Shown here: positions 16,770 through 23,145 of the stretch, piece by piece
How positions within the stretch are numbered: position 1 is the stretch's first letter
Layout: each line of letters begins with the position of its first letter
Program-made: the position numbers and the translations under genes
Notes under the pieces: model-generated
The model's database searches: none
Told to the model about the DNA's origin: nothing
What the model saw: the letters and a program-made list of their open reading frames with translations, nothing else
Source: a virus
Virus record (IMG/VR): IMGVR_UViG_3300034060_000730
Span: 1 to 27,802 of that record
Reading direction: 5' to 3' (one strand)
Length of the DNA: 27,802 bases

Positions 16770-19091
16770 CTAGTGGCCTGTGCCGCAGGAGCAACCCGAC
16801 TCAACGTCACCAGCAGGGGAAAGAGCAGCGAACTTCGCAGCCGCCGCAGCAGCCCGGACCGGGCGGAGCGCATCCCGGAACTCGGCAAGCTCAACCCGGA
16901 TCGAATCCAGCTCTCGCCGCAGATCGGACCGCTCAGTATCGGCAGTGTGGATCATGCCCGCCGCTACCAGAGCGGTGACTTCACCAGCCACAGAATCCCA
17001 CACGCCTCGTGGCGCAGAAACCTCAGCGCCTGAAGCGACCAGCCCTTCGACGATAAAGCCAGAAACGTTTACGGAGAGGAGGCCAACAACTTCGAGCCTG
17101 CCACCCAACTGCCGCCAGTCCGGGGAAACATCCGAGCCACGGAACTTGCGGACCTGCTCCGCAGACAAACCGGGACGCAACGCACCGGCAGCTACGATGC
17201 CGAACTCGTTCTCGTAGAGCGCGACATCGGCCACGCCGCAACCCGTGTCTGCGTAGAACGCTTGGGAATCGGAAGCGACCAGACGGAGGTTAGGGTGAAC
17301 CGTGTCCATGTAGATAGGCCCTGTGGCCACGAGCGTGCCTTCAGCGGTCAACACGTTCTTGTTACGGAAGTGCTTGTAAGCGCAACCTGACTTTGGAACC
17401 GGGACACACCGATCAGCAAACCCGATGTGGCAAGAACCCCACGCAGCGACTAGCCCGTAGCAGCGCCCATCGGGGTGAACCGTGAAAGGCTCAATGCCCG
17501 TCATGTTGCCGGGGAGGAACCAATCCATCGGAGGGTTAGTAGGAACCTCAACCGAAGCGGCAGCAGAGGCCACTAGAGCGGCAAGCCCGTCCTCTGCGTT
17601 GCCCTGCCCGGACAGCCACACGCCTAGAGGTGAAGGCACCCGCCATACGTCGCCCGCTGCCGTAGCGCCTGAAGCGACGAGGGTCTCGTCGACCTGTACG
17701 TCGTCTCCGCTCAGGACGGTAACGAATGCCTCTTGGAAGGCGGGGAACGGTGTGAGGGTCGCGCCCATCATGCGCCCGGCGACAAGAACTTCGAGTGCGT
17801 CAACGCCGCCGAACAACATATCTTCGGCGCTGATTGCTGAACCGTCTGCGGTCAAGAACTCAACCATCACGGAATCGATGTCGGCAGACACGCCGCGCAT
17901 CGTTCCTTCTTTGAGTAGGCGGTGCGCTTCAACCCCAGCGGAGCCTGAATCGAAGAAGCCACGGCCAACGATGTTCTGGCCCTGCCGTTCGATCTCGTGA
18001 ATCGACCCTGCGATCACTGCTCCGTCGTGGCCGGAAGCATTTGCTGTTTGAAGCATTAGTGGCAACGGCAGTTCACGCCATGTTAAAGCGTTCTCAGCGA
18101 TCTTGCGGCCATCGCCTGAAGCGATCCCTTCAACGATCAGCACGCCTTCCCAGTCGTAAAGCGTAACGGGTGCTTGGACCATCTCTGGTTCCTCGGCAAG
18201 CGTTGTGCCGTCAGCGGCCATCATCGCCTCGCCGCCATGCTCATCTTTATAACCGTGTTCATAGTCGTCGCCTTCCTCTGACTCAGCTTCGACAACGATA
18301 GAAGAACCGGCAGGGATCGTAACAACGATCTTGTCGTCCTCTTCGTCTTCCATGCCGCCGCCGCACATGCAACCTTCGCCGTGGTCTTTGGCGTAGCAGC
18401 CCTTTTCTTTAGACCCACCAATTTCAATCTCGGCTTCGACCTGTGTCACTTCAAGTTCGACTTCAATGACCGGATTGCCGAATGCTTCAGCGTCCTCAGC
18501 AGCAGCAACAGTAACCGGCTCCTCAATAGCATCATCGGGGGACAGACCAGCGACTGTTGTTTCAGCCCAGCGGCGTGCAAGCTCGGCCATCAACTCGTCA
18601 TCGGTAATGCCAGACATGTCGCCATCGGTGACAACGATCTCGCCTTCTTCAAGTTCGACCGGCTCAAGCGCTTCCGTCCCAAGGAGGTCGTCTTCTAGTT
18701 CACCCTCGTGCATATCAAACGATTCTGTTTCTACTGTTTCGCTCACTGCTTCAACCTCCATCTCAGCGGTGACCACGGGAGCGGTAACCGATTCCTGTAA
18801 CTCTGACATTGCTCCGGCAAGCATCGCGGTGAGCATCGCTTCCCGGTTTACAAACCCTGTCGGGGTCGTGCTGTTTGTCGCGACCTCTGGAACCTCCGGC
18901 GGCAACGCCTCGGCAGTCAAGTCGACATCGGGGTTATCCATCTGTCCGATCCACGCCTCTGCTTCGGCAGTAGTTAGGTGGCACGAGTCGTGAATGATCG
19001 TCCCGTCCTCTGCGGCGGATACAACGGCCACTGCGAAGCCCCCTGTTGGGAGCGGGCAGTACGGGCTATCGGGTACGACTTGGAAGCTCAT
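16770..19091 (-). CDS. Capsid maturation protease with long acidic N-terminal and C-terminal domains
   Basis: The 773-residue product's residues about 310-460 hold the prohead protease core: WEGVLIVEGIASGDGR, LTWRELPLPLMLQT, GHDGAVIAGSIHEI (candidate catalytic His 355) and MRGVSADID (candidate Ser 402). This is the actinophage version of the S78/U35-type prohead protease. Residues about 530-690 (IEPFTVHPDGRCYGLVAAWG, PDWRQLGGRLEVVGLLSVNV) form the C-terminal domain usual in that lineage. Residues 720-750 are a coiled coil. The first 300 residues are an unusually long, Glu/Val-rich acidic region with a Cys group (GCYAKDHGEGCMCGGG). The ATG has GGAG upstream. It should cleave the capsid delta domain. 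Confidence 0.88.
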   Translation of the reverse strand: MSFQVVPDSPYCPLPTGGFAVAVVSAAEDGTIIHDSCHLTTAEAEAWIGQMDNPDVDLTAEALPPEVPEVATNSTTPTGFVNREAMLTAMLAGAMSELQESVTAPVVTAEMEVEAVSETVETESFDMHEGELEDDLLGTEALEPVELEEGEIVVTDGDMSGITDDELMAELARRWAETTVAGLSPDDAIEEPVTVAAAEDAEAFGNPVIEVELEVTQVEAEIEIGGSKEKGCYAKDHGEGCMCGGGMEDEEDDKIVVTIPAGSSIVVEAESEEGDDYEHGYKDEHGGEAMMAADGTTLAEEPEMVQAPVTLYDWEGVLIVEGIASGDGRKIAENALTWRELPLPLMLQTANASGHDGAVIAGSIHEIERQGQNIVGRGFFDSGSAGVEAHRLLKEGTMRGVSADIDSVMVEFLTADGSAISAEDMLFGGVDALEVLVAGRMMGATLTPFPAFQEAFVTVLSGDDVQVDETLVASGATAAGDVWRVPSPLGVWLSGQGNAEDGLAALVASAAASVEVPTNPPMDWFLPGNMTGIEPFTVHPDGRCYGLVAAWGSCHIGFADRCVPVPKSGCAYKHFRNKNVLTAEGTLVATGPIYMDTVHPNLRLVASDSQAFYADTGCGVADVALYENEFGIVAAGALRPGLSAEQVRKFRGSDVSPDWRQLGGRLEVVGLLSVNVSGFIVEGLVASGAEVSAPRGVWDSVAGEVTALVAAGMIHTADTERSDLRRELDSIRVELAEFRDALRPVRAAAAAAKFAALSPAGDVESGCSCGTGH

Positions 19092-19212
19092 ATGGACTCC
19101 GAGAGTAACACGGCGGGTGCGCTAGTTGCGGGTGGCCTGACCTTACTATGAAGAAACCCAAGTCTCGGATGGGTTAGTTGATAGCAAATTGCAGGGGCTG
19201 GAATTGGGGCCA

Positions 19213-19272
19213 AAAAGAAATCTCAGAAATCTTTCCTAATTGGCTTGCTCCTGTAGAAGCGTGTGCTACAGT
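19213..19272 (+). promoter_or_regulatory. Plus-strand promoter P3
   Basis: AAAAGAAATCT 19213-19223, TTGCTC 19245-19250, 16-bp spacer, TACAGT 19267-19272. A perfect inverted repeat CTGTAG-N9-CTACAG lies at 19251-19271. It sits in the 355-bp gap between the protease start and the 58-residue gene, pointing opposite to both. Confidence 0.75.
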
Positions 19273-19295
19273 AGACCTTGTACCGCAGGAACGGC

Positions 19296-19379
19296 AAGCA
19301 ACCACCGCAGCAGAACATCGCAGCGACCGCCCCAAACACCGGCGATACAGAGCAGGACGATAAGCAACCACCGCAGCAG
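19296..19379 (+). repeat. 18-bp direct repeat pair, 66 bp apart
   Basis: AAGCAACCACCGCAGCAG occurs at 19296-19313 and 19362-19379, each followed a little later by a related CNGCGACCGCC. The 66-bp spacing is a multiple of three, which would fit a duplicated coding unit, or a repeated RNA element. Confidence 0.8.
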
Positions 19380-19411
19380 CAAACAACACTGCGACCGCCT
19401 CCACACCTGCA

Positions 19412-19441
19412 AAGAAGCCCTCCGGCAACGGGGGGCTTCTT
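19412..19441. terminator. Bidirectional terminator hairpin
   Basis: AAGAAGCCC and GGGCTTCTT form a perfect 9-bp stem with a 12-base loop. It ends the plus-strand P3 transcript and lies directly after the stop of the minus-strand 58-residue gene, so it can serve both. Confidence 0.8.
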
Positions 19442-19446
19442 CGATT

Positions 19447-19623
19447 CTATATCTCGATCTCCAACTCAGCGTCCCCGTCCGACAAACCCAAGAACACCTC
19501 TCGCCCCAACATCGCAACACCAGACGTTCCAAACAAACGGTCCAACGCCGCTTCCTGCTCCGCCGAAGTCAGGTCATCGAAATCCACAACGTCTATCGGC
19601 GGCATCGGCGGCATATCAGGCAT
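19447..19623 (-). CDS. Small acidic protein after MuF
   Basis: The 58-residue product starts at ATG 19623, 7 bp after the MuF stop. The sequence begins MPDMPPMPPIDVVDFDDLTS, then a helix SAEQEAALDRLFG and a Gly/Asp-rich end. It is conserved neither to a family I know nor obviously noise; codon choice and operon position support it. It could be a small scaffold-associated or MuF-partner (immunity-like) protein. Confidence 0.55.
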   Translation of the reverse strand: MPDMPPMPPIDVVDFDDLTSAEQEAALDRLFGTSGVAMLGREVFLGLSDGDAELEIEI

Positions 19624-19630
19624 AGAAAAA

Positions 19631-21253
19631 TTATGCCACACCAGATAGACGTAAAGCTTTACGGATCGCTTCGCGTACTGGGCCAAACGCCGCATCGCTC
19701 CACACATATGAAATGGCTGCAATCTCTGGAGTCTGCATCAGAGCCAGCTCTGCAAGCATCGCGACGTTGCCACTTTCAACCGCTACAAATTGTGCATAAG
19801 CCCTTGCGAAGACTTCGACCGGCTTCAACAGGTAATCCGTATGCGCGGTTATTGCCGCGCCTCTCATCCTGAACCCGTCATAGATAAACGAACCCTGATC
19901 AATCGCCGCCGCCCGCAAAGCAATCAGCGATTCAATTTCAGGTGTTGCGTACAGCGCCTCCAAGACCCCAGCCATTTCAGCGCTCGCACCAGACAGCCCT
20001 GCTTCAGCGCTCCAGACTCCGGTGCCGTAGCCGCCGGGCGCTGTTCCAATATCTCCCCAGTCCATATAATGCCCAATCTCGTGAGCAACCGTGTTCAGAT
20101 TTGTGGCCCCATCTTTAATCGAAATGTAGCTCAACAAGTCGCCAGTTTCGTTATCAAGTAAACGGACAAAATTGCCCTGCCCTTCACCAGTTAAAACATG
20201 AAACGTGACGTCTGGAGTACCAGCAGGGACACCGTGAAGTCCTTCAACCGTACTAATGACTTCGTCGACCGCCGCCTGAACCCGAGTGGCTGCAACCTCA
20301 ATACCTCTAACAGGAGCTGTAGGCACGAAACGAACGTCTTTGGGCAAACCCAGTTCAGATTTCCACGCCGCCCTTAGTTCTCTGTCAGCAAAATTGCTTA
20401 ACGGTCTCAGTTCGCCATTTGCCAAAGCATCAAGAACTTGCTGCCCGCCAGATTCAAGTACCGCTGAACCAACCGCACCGTCCTCCGCTGCCGCCGCAAC
20501 CACCGACCAATCCTCACCAAGGACCGTGGCCCTTGGATCTTCCATCTCGTAATCGGTTTCACACTGGCAGTTAATAGCTTCAGCATCCGACAACGCAGGG
20601 TCGCCGGGGAATTCGCACTCCTCGCCGCCAACCATAAACATCTCGTCAAAGCCAACGACCTGCCCGTCAGCATCCAGATGAGTAGGTCTGGTATTAGCGC
20701 CAGCCGCAACCCAAGTCTTAAACCCCTGCTGCAACTCCGCACCCGCAGACAGCCCGCCTTGATCCGCTGCGTCGCCCTCCGTCAAAACCACACCATCTTC
20801 GATACCCGCAGACAAAGGTCCAGCCGCCGCTACAAGTCCAAGCTGCTCCAACATCCACCCACGGGTTTCGCCCTGTCCGGTATCCGCTAGAACAGCAACC
20901 CGCTTGCCAACCGTGACAGCAAGATGCCGAACCCTGTTGACTTGCGCGCGCCACGAAGTCTCCGCAGACCACAGCACCCACGGCGGGACAGTCTTTGTAT
21001 CGGGAGGCAACGTTAGAAACGCCGCCCGCATATACGCATCCCACAAGACCGGGGCCACGAACTTATCCGTGGCCTCAACCCACCACGAGTCATCCCATAG
21101 CTCCGCCGCCGAGTAAACCCCCGGCTCTGAAGCCATCACCGCCGCCCGCAACTTTGACCGTGAAGCATCAAAGGCTTCGCTTGTAGCCTGCCGCAATCTC
21201 AGCCGAGTGAGATTCTGGTTCCTAGCCGGTAGCTGAACTTTGCGAGTTGCCAT
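19631..21253 (-). CDS. MuF-like minor capsid protein fused to an HExxH metallopeptidase-like domain
   Basis: The product has 540 residues. Residues about 1-235 form the MuF part, ending in the diagnostic WVAAGANTRPTHLDADGQVV ... FPGDPALSDAEAINCQC. MuF proteins sit at the portal, are packaged in the head and may be ejected with DNA. Residues about 300-540 form a second domain with NLNTVAHEIGHYMDWG (HEIGH at 391-395) and KPVEVFARAYAQF (E480 a candidate third zinc ligand). This resembles metallopeptidase domains in polyvalent phage proteins and MuF polymorphic toxins. The ATG overlaps the portal stop (TGATG). A small acidic ORF follows. Confidence 0.87.
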   Translation of the reverse strand: MATRKVQLPARNQNLTRLRLRQATSEAFDASRSKLRAAVMASEPGVYSAAELWDDSWWVEATDKFVAPVLWDAYMRAAFLTLPPDTKTVPPWVLWSAETSWRAQVNRVRHLAVTVGKRVAVLADTGQGETRGWMLEQLGLVAAAGPLSAGIEDGVVLTEGDAADQGGLSAGAELQQGFKTWVAAGANTRPTHLDADGQVVGFDEMFMVGGEECEFPGDPALSDAEAINCQCETDYEMEDPRATVLGEDWSVVAAAAEDGAVGSAVLESGGQQVLDALANGELRPLSNFADRELRAAWKSELGLPKDVRFVPTAPVRGIEVAATRVQAAVDEVISTVEGLHGVPAGTPDVTFHVLTGEGQGNFVRLLDNETGDLLSYISIKDGATNLNTVAHEIGHYMDWGDIGTAPGGYGTGVWSAEAGLSGASAEMAGVLEALYATPEIESLIALRAAAIDQGSFIYDGFRMRGAAITAHTDYLLKPVEVFARAYAQFVAVESGNVAMLAELALMQTPEIAAISYVWSDAAFGPVREAIRKALRLSGVA

Positions 21254-23145
21254 CAGCTTGCCGTTTCCATATTTGCAAACGTCGCTAACGCGCGCCGCAA
21301 TGGAATCAACACCACCTCTTGCGGAACTTCCAAAACCCCACCCTGCACAGAAACTTGATGTGTAAAGGAATCCAGAGAGAGCATAACGGAATCCAAAACG
21401 TTCTCCGTAACCGTCGCAGCCATTACCGGCTCAAAGCCCGTCGCCAATAACCAATCGGAAACGAACACGCCTGCCACCGCTTTGAACTCTTCCCAGCCGC
21501 CTGTTTCCTGCCCCGCTCCAAGCGCTTTCACAAGGGCCACGTCCGCCGCCCCGGTCAACTTGTCTACTAGGTCACCCGTTGCCGCCACAGACGGCTCTGT
21601 CCCCGCAGACGGGGCCACGGATGGTTCCGCCGGTGGAAGCATCGCTGCCGCCGGGTCGGGGGGAACAGCGGCCACAGGAGCGGCCTGTGCGGGACTAGAG
21701 GATGGAGTAGGCGCTACGCCAGCGAACAGGTAGCCCAGCTCGGGGTATAGCTCGGGGAGGAGCAGTGGCCCATAAGTTCCGGGGTCGGCCATCAAAACTT
21801 TTTCTAGCGTGCGCCGCCGCCGCTCATCCTCAGACGGGTAGTCCTCTAACTGAAACCCGTTGGCCCGCAAATACGAAACGTCAGAAAGGGCCAAGCGGTC
21901 CCACGCGCCAGTGGCCGCTGGACCCTCATCCTGCCGAGCAGTCAAAATGCGTGAATCAAAGACCAACTCAAACCGTTGAACGTCCTCGTCAGATACATGT
22001 TCGAACTCTGCGAGCATCGGACGCAGGTACGCGACCGTTATGAACTCTGCGATCATCTCGCCAACCGGATTCACATGCTTACCAATTAGGTCGGCATCGA
22101 CGTTGTAGCTAGACCAGTGGTTCAACCCCGCCTTGCCACCAATGATCTCCGGCGGCGCGTCCAACCCTTTAGCCAGCCGATCCAACAACTCCATGCGGAG
22201 GTCGTGGAACGTCGAATCCAAATCCTGCGCCAACTGAACGAGCCTGATCTTGTCGCCATACTCCGCAGCGCCACGAACAACTAGCGGGACCAACCCAGCC
22301 GCAGAGGTACGATCCCTAACCGGAGCAGACATATGTTCCACGAGCGTCCCAATGAACTCGTCAAAGTCATCGGAGTCGTTTGGCGCTTCAGTCTCGTTGA
22401 TAGGACCAAAGCTCATCTCCTCTGGGATAAACAACATGCCAGACGAGAGCCGCGACTTAGCGATTGAATCAACGACCTCCGATAGGACAACTAGTTCACG
22501 GCAGATCGGCAACACACGTTTCATCGGTGAATCAGCCCGCAAAGAATACCTCGGGTCCGGTCGCCACAGCCGTGCGATAAACGCTTCAACATCAACGAAG
22601 CCTGCGTCGCCATCGGATAGCCCGCTGGCGTTTCGTTTGATCCGTTGCCCGCCCTGACCTGCGGTGACACGGATCTCCTCGGTGGACAAGAACTCCCACA
22701 AGAACCCTGCGGCCCGGTCAAACTTATCTTTGAGCGGTGTCCCCAACAGATAACTCTCACCAGCTATTTGCAAATGCATTGCCGCTCGGCGTTTCAGTTC
22801 TTTCTGCCCGCCCTGCGGTCCGGTAAACGCTTCCATAACGCGAACGGCACGAGGGTCAGTTGACTCGTCCATCTCCAAACCGTCAACCCCGATTTTGCTT
22901 TCCACCACGCGAAGCTCACAAGTCGAAACCAGATTCGCAACCAAATTGTTGAGGTAGCCGATCTCGCCAATCAACTCGTTAAACGAAAACGCATCCCGCT
23001 GCCACTCGTGGCCTTTACGAGCAGGGACGGTCCAAGCGTCAATTCGTGACAGCGCCGCCGAAGACACCGATGCAATATTTGGTTGCGGCGCGATCATCGC
23101 AAACTCGGCGGCGGTCTGTTGGTTCCATCTTGAAGCGCGAGGCAT
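21253..23145 (-). CDS. Portal protein
   Basis: The 630-residue product's N-terminal and middle parts match actinophage (SPP1-like) portals: ELIGEIGYLNNLVANLVSTC, AGESYLLGTP, LWRPDPRYSLRADSPM, LVVLSEVVDSIAKSRLSSGM, and the stem and clip region DLRMELLDRLAKGLDAPPEI followed by GLNHWSSYNVDADLIGKHV. Residues about 480-540 are a Pro/Ala linker, then a helical C-terminal domain. Portals form the dodecameric DNA gate. The ATG has no ribosome site; TACAGT lies exactly 6 nt upstream, suggesting a leaderless message. It overlaps MuF by 1 bp. Confidence 0.93.
   Translation of the reverse strand: MPRASRWNQQTAAEFAMIAPQPNIASVSSAALSRIDAWTVPARKGHEWQRDAFSFNELIGEIGYLNNLVANLVSTCELRVVESKIGVDGLEMDESTDPRAVRVMEAFTGPQGGQKELKRRAAMHLQIAGESYLLGTPLKDKFDRAAGFLWEFLSTEEIRVTAGQGGQRIKRNASGLSDGDAGFVDVEAFIARLWRPDPRYSLRADSPMKRVLPICRELVVLSEVVDSIAKSRLSSGMLFIPEEMSFGPINETEAPNDSDDFDEFIGTLVEHMSAPVRDRTSAAGLVPLVVRGAAEYGDKIRLVQLAQDLDSTFHDLRMELLDRLAKGLDAPPEIIGGKAGLNHWSSYNVDADLIGKHVNPVGEMIAEFITVAYLRPMLAEFEHVSDEDVQRFELVFDSRILTARQDEGPAATGAWDRLALSDVSYLRANGFQLEDYPSEDERRRRTLEKVLMADPGTYGPLLLPELYPELGYLFAGVAPTPSSSPAQAAPVAAVPPDPAAAMLPPAEPSVAPSAGTEPSVAATGDLVDKLTGAADVALVKALGAGQETGGWEEFKAVAGVFVSDWLLATGFEPVMAATVTENVLDSVMLSLDSFTHQVSVQGGVLEVPQEVVLIPLRRALATFANMETAS

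What the first reader, a model, noticed from the sequence alone, without database searches (positions are those of the whole stretch)
19631..21253. MuF protein carrying an HExxH metallopeptidase-like C-terminal domain
The N-terminal MuF motif is intact, and the extra 240 residues hold HEIGH and a downstream PVEVFARAYAQF. MuF proteins with C-terminal enzymatic or toxin domains are known as polymorphic toxins, and metallopeptidases occur in polyvalent phage proteins. Packaging such a domain in the head would allow delivery of a protease into the host. The adjacent small acidic gene (19447-19623) could be a partner.
Basis: partly seen in the sequence, partly recalled or inferred. Interest (0 to 1): 0.75.

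Follow-up and report, generated by a model that had tools for sequence, protein, structure and literature searches.

The report
Phage head protease plus small partner
A phage head protein carries at its end what looks like a working zinc protease, and the gene is followed by a tiny acidic gene that recurs beside the same protease in many unrelated phages, so the two are probably an injected effector and its safety catch.

Summary
The gene is on the minus strand (19631-21253): a MuF minor head protein, directly after the portal gene, with a C-terminal HExxH domain. AlphaFold2 gives a confident zincin fold (pLDDT 87, pTM 0.87); the best structural matches are gluzincin proteases. HExxH is kept in 88 of 88 aligned relatives and the third-ligand glutamate (E480) in 87. 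In four close phages the portal, MuF and protease genes are 83-94% identical, but the zincin falls to 48-52% in five of six pairs. The main new result is the small acidic gene (19447-19623). Homologous 46-88 aa acidic ORFs, usually overlapping the zincin stop codon, follow the zincin in most of 90 divergent clusters, also where no MuF is detected. The small protein's similarity tracks the zincin, not the N-terminus. Pfam and PHROGs hold no consistent match. MuF toxins, MuF-metallopeptidases and downstream ORFs as putative immunity genes are already published (Jamet 2017), and two other MuF toxins have proven immunity proteins. I read this as a MuF-delivered protease effector with a dedicated inhibitor: a new, unusually widespread member of a known kind. 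Proteolysis, packaging and inhibition are inferred, not shown.

The parts
19631..21253 (-). MuF-zincin gene, 540 aa
   Evidence: Open frame ATG to TAA; MuF PHROGs hits
20537..20719 (-). MuF motif region, aa 179-239
   Evidence: phrog_2468 1.4e-17, PF04233 E 0.00098 below cut-off
19634..20302 (-). Zincin domain, aa 318-540 (first core helix to the end of the protein)
   Evidence: AlphaFold2 model pLDDT 87.3, pTM 0.87; core helix, three strands, HExxH helix, glutamate helix; gluzincin matches
20069..20083 (-). HEIGH, aa 391-395: predicted zinc ligands H391 and H395, general base E392
   Evidence: 88 of 88 in alignment A4; coordinates
19814..19816 (-). E480, predicted third zinc ligand, in PVE480VFARAYAQF
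   Evidence: 87 of 88, one D
20234..20236 (-). H340, invariant histidine of unknown role
   Evidence: 88 of 88
19447..19623 (-). 58-aa acidic ORF starting 7 nt after the zincin stop codon; member of a small partner family
   Evidence: Conserved at +10 in L025-L028; partner-family profile; model pLDDT 82, two helices
21253..23145 (-). Portal protein gene, immediately upstream, overlapping by 1 nt (context)
   Evidence: phrog_776 portal 7.3e-90
16770..19091 (-). Downstream gene matching the protease half of mycobacteriophage MuF-protease fusions (context)
   Evidence: phrog_859 positions 360-779, 1.7e-73; phrog_18402 head maturation protease 1e-24

Best explanation
The gene encodes a MuF-type polymorphic effector. 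The MuF part places a few copies at the portal inside the head (inferred from MuF proteins such as SPP1 gp7). The C-terminal gluzincin goes into the cell with the DNA and cleaves a host protein (inferred). The 58-aa acidic protein, translated from the overlapping or adjoining downstream ORF, binds and blocks the zincin in the producing cell or lysogen (inferred). Shown here by computation: the zincin fold, the conserved catalytic set, the family-wide small partner that travels and co-varies with the zincin, and the fast divergence of the zincin against its neighbours.
For: Fold: AF2 pLDDT 87.3, pTM 0.87, core H37-58, E68-72, E79-85, E92-98, H104-119 with HExxH, H197-213 with the Glu. VIA-align top rows are gluzincins: lethal factor Z 8.9 (159 aligned, 3.5 A), PPEP-1 7.7, ERAP1 7.2, thermolysin 6.7. 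Catalytic set 88/88 and 87/88. Partner: 82 of 90 clusters have a 40-115 aa ORF starting at -30 to +60 of the zincin stop, against 204 of 516 other ORF ends. An iterated profile gives 72 adjacent hits at E<=1e-3 against 1 elsewhere, itself 213 nt downstream of a zincin. Held-out loci: 16-23 of 40-41 recovered at E<=0.01, 0-3 hits elsewhere. In 25 whole genomes, about 120 Mb, all 13 hits with E<0.005 abut a zincin, four of them not in the profile. Small-protein similarity follows the zincin (partial rho 0.39, 0 of 1000 permutations), not the N-terminus (0.07, 76 of 1000). The zincin diverges faster than its neighbours. The zincin ends the protein in all 88, the position Zhang 2012 assigns to toxins rather than releasing proteases. 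Bxa and Apk2 are MuF toxins with adjacent immunity proteins.
Against: No wet evidence for activity, packaging or inhibition. HExxH folds need not be peptidases: Foldseek rank 3 is an HExxH oxygenase. No Foldseek match reached E 0.001, and best VIA Z values of 7-8 are typical of models without a clear match (note). The partner profile finds only 13 of 30 zincin loci in the 25 genomes below E 0.005. In 288 Verrucomicrobiota genomes, 11 of 12 partner hits at E<=0.01 were not at zincins, mostly weak hits inside long frames, one at 1.2e-4 unresolved. Some zincins lack a recognisable partner (L024, L051, L121, L172, the Akkermansia phages). Temperate lifestyle of this phage could not be tested.
Confidence: 0.62

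Rival explanations
1. Virion self-processing protease: the zincin cleaves the MuF protein or other head proteins during assembly or ejection, and the small protein is its timing inhibitor or chaperone.
For: Iyer 2017 discusses autoproteolytic processing for MPTases in packaged proteins such as P1 DdrB. The zincin also occurs in portal-type and MuF2 head proteins, where processing would fit. A dedicated inhibitor fits this too.
Against: The phage has a separate maturation-protease gene. The domain is at the very C-terminus in 88 of 88, so nothing lies beyond it to be released. Its fast allelic divergence suits a conflict better than capsid assembly. It also occurs in short proteins with no detectable head domain (L094, L107, L123, L125, L126).
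Confidence: 0.2
2. Counter-defence effector: the injected protease destroys a host defence protein, and the small protein only protects related host proteins or the phage's own proteins late in infection. This overlaps the best explanation and differs in the target and purpose.
For: Jamet 2017 suggests that mild MuF effectors may counter host defence or bias lysis-lysogeny. Strong zincin divergence between close phages would fit changing targets.
Against: Nothing here identifies a target or links the gene to a defence system.
Confidence: 0.25
3. The HExxH domain is a structural or non-peptidase metal domain and the small gene is an ordinary head-completion or DNA-binding protein.
For: An HExxH oxygenase is among the weak Foldseek matches. 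Small acidic proteins are common in phage head operons (general knowledge, not tested).
Against: The full gluzincin set, including the distant Glu, is kept and gluzincin peptidases lead the structural list. The small family follows the zincin even where no MuF is detected and was absent after 5 of 5 MuF genes that lack the zincin.
Confidence: 0.1

Closest known systems
MuF polymorphic toxins of temperate phages (Jamet 2017, PMC5576092)
   Same: MuF N-terminus next to portal, C-terminal effector, small downstream ORF; [quoted passage not shown]
   Different: In the sections I read (7, 8, 13) they treat small ORFs as a class; here one homologous partner family is tied to one zincin family across many phyla and N-termini. 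Their supplementary tables could not be read, so overlap with their metallopeptidase set is unknown.
Bxa (MuF-ADP-ribosyltransferase, PMC11699363) and Apk2 (MuF-pppApp synthetase, PMC12226406)
   Same: Experimentally toxic MuF C-termini with adjacent immunity proteins, some acting by direct binding. N-termini of 10 of 82 members scanned match phrog_16625, named Bxa ADP-ribosyl transferase.
   Different: Different enzyme; no proteolytic MuF toxin appears in the passages read.
Zincin-like MPTase of polyvalent proteins and LPD1 (Iyer 2017, PMC5512222; Pfam PF18796)
   Same: HExxH with a Glu on a later helix, an Asp three residues after HExxH (83 of 88 here); LPD1 matches 43 of 88 at E<=0.01.
   Different: LPD1 matches are weak (the window member has none at 0.01). 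Their extra His is at the end of strand 2, whereas H340 here follows the first core helix.
Lethal-factor/PPEP gluzincin fold (family label M34 recalled)
   Same: Best VIA-align rows, Z 8.9 and 7.7.
   Different: 11-13% identity; Pfam ATLF matches only 2 of 88, best E 0.0028.

Membership tests
MuF polymorphic toxins | N-terminal MuF domain | tested here: met
   phrog_2468 1.4e-17 and others; PF04233 below its cut-off
MuF polymorphic toxins | Gene immediately downstream of portal | tested here: met
   Portal at 21253-23145, phrog_776 7.3e-90
MuF polymorphic toxins | Variable C-terminal domain on a shared N-terminus | tested here: met
   MuF 83-94%, zincin 48-52% in 5 of 6 pairs of four phages. 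No close relative with a different kind of C-terminus was found.
MuF polymorphic toxins | Small downstream ORF, putative immunity | tested here: met
   58-aa ORF, conserved in L025-L028
MuF polymorphic toxins | Encoded by a temperate phage | tested here: inconclusive
   The contig is a fragment; relatives lie in 35 bacterial genome loci, some likely prophages
MuF polymorphic toxins | Toxicity neutralised by the partner | not testable with these tools
   Needs expression assays
Gluzincin metallopeptidases | HExxH plus downstream Glu | tested here: met
   88/88 and 87/88
Gluzincin metallopeptidases | Zincin fold | tested here: met
   Model and structural matches; distances at the zinc site were not measured
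Gluzincin metallopeptidases | Zinc-dependent proteolysis | not testable with these tools
   Needs assay
Lethal-factor/PPEP family | Specific sequence or fold kinship | tested here: inconclusive
   Top VIA rows but Z near background; ATLF in 2 of 88
Polyvalent-protein MPTase clade | Asp three residues after HExxH and conserved His at the end of strand 2 | tested here: inconclusive
   Asp 83/88 met; the invariant His lies after the first core helix instead

The most novel reading that the evidence does not exclude
An old protease-inhibitor pair, with a small inhibitor family unnamed in Pfam and PHROGs, is passed as one cassette among different virion ejection proteins (MuF, MuF2, portal fusions) of phages from many bacterial phyla, making it the first proteolytic MuF toxin-immunity system.
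Probability: 0.5. Interest if true: 0.66.

Novelty: new member of a known kind. Interest (0 to 1): 0.52.

Why it matters
A 2024 paper named Apk2, besides its own Bxa, as the only characterised MuF toxins (PMC11699363, passages). A protease version with one recognisable partner family, found across many phyla including culturable hosts (Akkermansia muciniphila, Microbacterium aoyamense, Subtercola boreus, Haloferula luteola), makes the open question of what MuF effectors do during infection directly testable. A natural 58-aa inhibitor of a gluzincin would also be of structural interest.

Tried and rejected
Sequence search of the zincin against PDB chains: the window domain alone hit only designed proteins; the profile hit ADAMTS-5 around HExxH (9e-5), which I read as a shared motif, not kinship.

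L029's second zincin gene: by eye its N-terminus looked like a fused partner. Shuffles (25 of 1000 at best) and a small profile (E 10) do not support this; dropped.

Foldseek with the small protein: no match better than E 4.3. Weak single Pfam hits (RuvA_C, UBA, HHH) are suggestive at most.

I first thought the 58-aa ORF was not conserved, because an early listing missed ORFs whose frame began before the first start codon shown; one search corrected this.

PHROG labels 'portal protein' for phrog_859 and phrog_2662 were taken as mislabels of fusion proteins and not as evidence that this gene is a portal.

Rows dropped before counts: identical or overlapping loci (L001, L002, L004, L007-L011, L129-L136) were left out; loci were clustered at 70% identity to 90; the window record, L005, L006 and L124 were left out of the list made (the window was then added back as first row of A4). 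One of the 90 clusters (L124) is a broken reading frame. Some N-termini are cut by contig ends (for example L128). The covariation test used 51 loci with a profile-detected partner and an N-terminus over 150 aa, which favours recognisable pairs.

Full report
What is there. Window 19631-21253 on the minus strand encodes a 540-aa protein in a virus contig of 27,802 bases. The gene follows the portal gene (phrog_776, 7.3e-90) with a one-base overlap and precedes, after a 58-aa ORF, a gene matching the protease half of mycobacteriophage MuF-protease fusions (phrog_859; its MuF half matches the present gene). So the two halves of that fusion are separate genes here, and the zincin sits at the end of the MuF half.

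The C-terminal domain is a zincin. In the annotated phage collection only two records match the C-terminal 259 aa at E<=1: the Akkermansia phages Chantilly and Chambord, in proteins annotated 'head morphogenesis'. Profile scans gave 15 viral loci, then 118 (80 kept) and 35 bacterial-genome loci, from Verrucomicrobia, Actinobacteria, Chloroflexi, Deinococcota, Acidobacteria, Armatimonadetes, Planctomycetes, Proteobacteria, Bacteroidetes and others, judged by record titles. These collapse to 90 clusters at 70% identity. In an alignment of 88 domains, H340, H391, E392, G394, H395, R484, Y486 and Q488 are invariant, E480 is kept in 87 and D398 in 83. The search patterns were HEIGHY-like and [FW]AR[AS]YAQ-like, so R484, Y486 and Q488 are partly selected; HExxH is not, because 79 clusters without the first pattern all keep it. 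The AlphaFold2 model is confident (pLDDT 87.3, pTM 0.87) with the helix, three-strand sheet, HExxH helix and Glu helix expected of a zincin. VIA-align puts the lethal-factor protease domain (Z 8.9), PPEP-1 (7.7), ERAP1 (7.2), leukotriene A4 hydrolase (6.7) and thermolysin (6.7) on top. Foldseek alone had no hit below E 0.001, its best being a putative zinc metallopeptidase (0.022), and a non-peptidase HExxH oxygenase was third. Pfam LPD1 matches 43 of 88 domains weakly.

The small partner. The window ORF (58 aa, charge -12) starts 7 nt after the zincin stop codon. Close relatives L025, L026, L027 and L028 keep a 56-57 aa homologue at the same distance. Across 90 clusters, 82 have a 40-115 aa ORF starting between -30 and +60 of the zincin stop, against 204 of 516 other plus-strand ORF ends in the same loci (the control set may include spurious ORFs). 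Of 56 partner sequences matched at E<=1e-3 after redundancy removal, 54 are negatively charged (median -9), length 46-88 aa, and 28 start exactly at -10. Their shared core reads roughly LG...A..I.AIE.GE.DGD. An iterated profile run over 19,366 ORFs gave, at E<=1e-3, 72 hits next to a zincin and 1 elsewhere; that one is 213 nt downstream of a zincin, behind another small ORF. Because the seeds were chosen beside zincins, I repeated it with half of the clusters held out: 16-23 of 40-41 held-out loci were recovered at E<=0.01, with 0-3 hits elsewhere. In 25 whole genomes, about 120 Mb, the 13 hits with E<0.005 all abut a zincin. Nine of those 13 belong to sequences in the profile; four do not (G021:C438, G028:C19, G013:C146, G004:C153). 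The profile missed 17 of the 30 zincin loci there at that threshold. Among 288 Verrucomicrobiota genomes, zincins occur in 6 (5 strong); 12 partner hits at E<=0.01 include only one at a zincin, the rest being mostly weak hits inside long frames, one (1.2e-4) unresolved. Reading six further intact zincin loci directly, five have a small ORF at the expected place (L171, L173, L174, L175, L176) and one does not (L172). Of 14 Pfam MuF hits in the 25 genomes, 5 lie in genes without a zincin, and none of these 5 has a partner-family ORF after it.

The partner belongs to the zincin, not to MuF. N-termini differ: of 82 scanned, 46 match PF04233, 4 match PF06152, and portal families PF04860, PF06074 and PF06381 match 1 each. 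Six further clusters have almost no N-terminus (L128 is cut by its contig end), and a small ORF follows in all six. A very divergent or split-off MuF cannot be excluded for these. In 51 pairs, small-protein similarity follows zincin similarity (rho 0.43; 0.39 after removing the N-terminus; 0 of 1000 permutations), but not the N-terminus once the zincin is accounted for (0.07; 76 of 1000). One Chloroflexi locus has lost the catalytic middle of the zincin, yet the partner frame is still open (L177): a single case compatible with retained immunity.

The zincin diverges as an effector would. Between the window and L025, L026 and L028, MuF is 83-85% and portal 84-86% identical, but the zincin 49-52%. 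L025 and L028 share 92% in MuF and 48% in the zincin; dN is 0.46 against 0.055 and dS 1.26 against 0.71, so both older alleles (or exchange) and weaker constraint are involved. Only L026 and L028 share one allele (81%), and their partners are also the most similar (84%, others 66-74%). Synonymous distances with the window are near saturation.

What it probably does. MuF-carried C-terminal enzymes are established as polymorphic toxins. Jamet 2017 (passages and sections 7, 8 and 13 read) reports 191 putative MuF toxins, 20% with a metallopeptidase domain and 89.4% followed by a small ORF against 25.5% of 952 short MuF genes. Bxa (passages and discussion read) and Apk2 (abstract read) are toxic in bacteria and have adjacent immunity proteins, some acting by binding. 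Zhang 2012 (two sections and passages read) argues that N-terminal peptidases act as releasing autoproteases and that ones at the extreme C-terminus take the place of a toxin; here the domain ends the protein in all 88 aligned cases. The most economical reading is a virion-delivered protease held in check by its small acidic partner. Delivery, proteolysis, toxicity and inhibition are inference. Self-processing of head proteins (Iyer 2017, section 8) remains the main rival.

Novelty. Architecture, delivery idea and the immunity-ORF idea are in print. I found no description of this partner family: no consistent match in Pfam or PHROGs, and seven text searches gave none in what I saw of them. The supplementary tables of Jamet 2017 could not be read, so the family may be listed there unnamed.

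Noticed in passing
window 16770-21253: The MuF and maturation-protease halves that are one protein in many mycobacteriophages (phrog_859) are two genes here, with the zincin and the small ORF in between.
   Followed up: partly
L029:2971-5934: A relative carries two zincin genes in tandem, one on MuF and one separate, followed by one small-partner ORF.
   Followed up: partly
L029:4539-8445: A motif close to RGAPIRGEGGRFGGSEPG occurs in the second zincin gene and in the following large gene; it might be a head-targeting or processing signal.
   Followed up: no
L177 (G021:C438): A zincin remnant lacking its catalytic middle lies beside a transporter-like gene in a Chloroflexi genome, with the small-partner frame still open.
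   Followed up: partly
window 10653-12780: Three genes between major head and tail genes; the one at 10653-11240 matches a glycosyltransferase family (PF04488, 5.7e-9), the other two look similar by eye only.
   Followed up: no
L049 and L092, just after the zincin: The small-partner-like frame lies on the opposite strand, converging on the zincin gene.
   Followed up: no
zincin C-terminus, many loci: The partner often starts at -10, which places its start codon inside the codons of the conserved terminal GW of the zincin, so part of that conservation may serve the small gene (the link to GW is my reading).
   Followed up: no
A5 N-termini: Single members carry an intein-splicing domain (1.5e-9) and an inorganic-pyrophosphatase-like domain (1.2e-19) before the zincin.
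   Followed up: no
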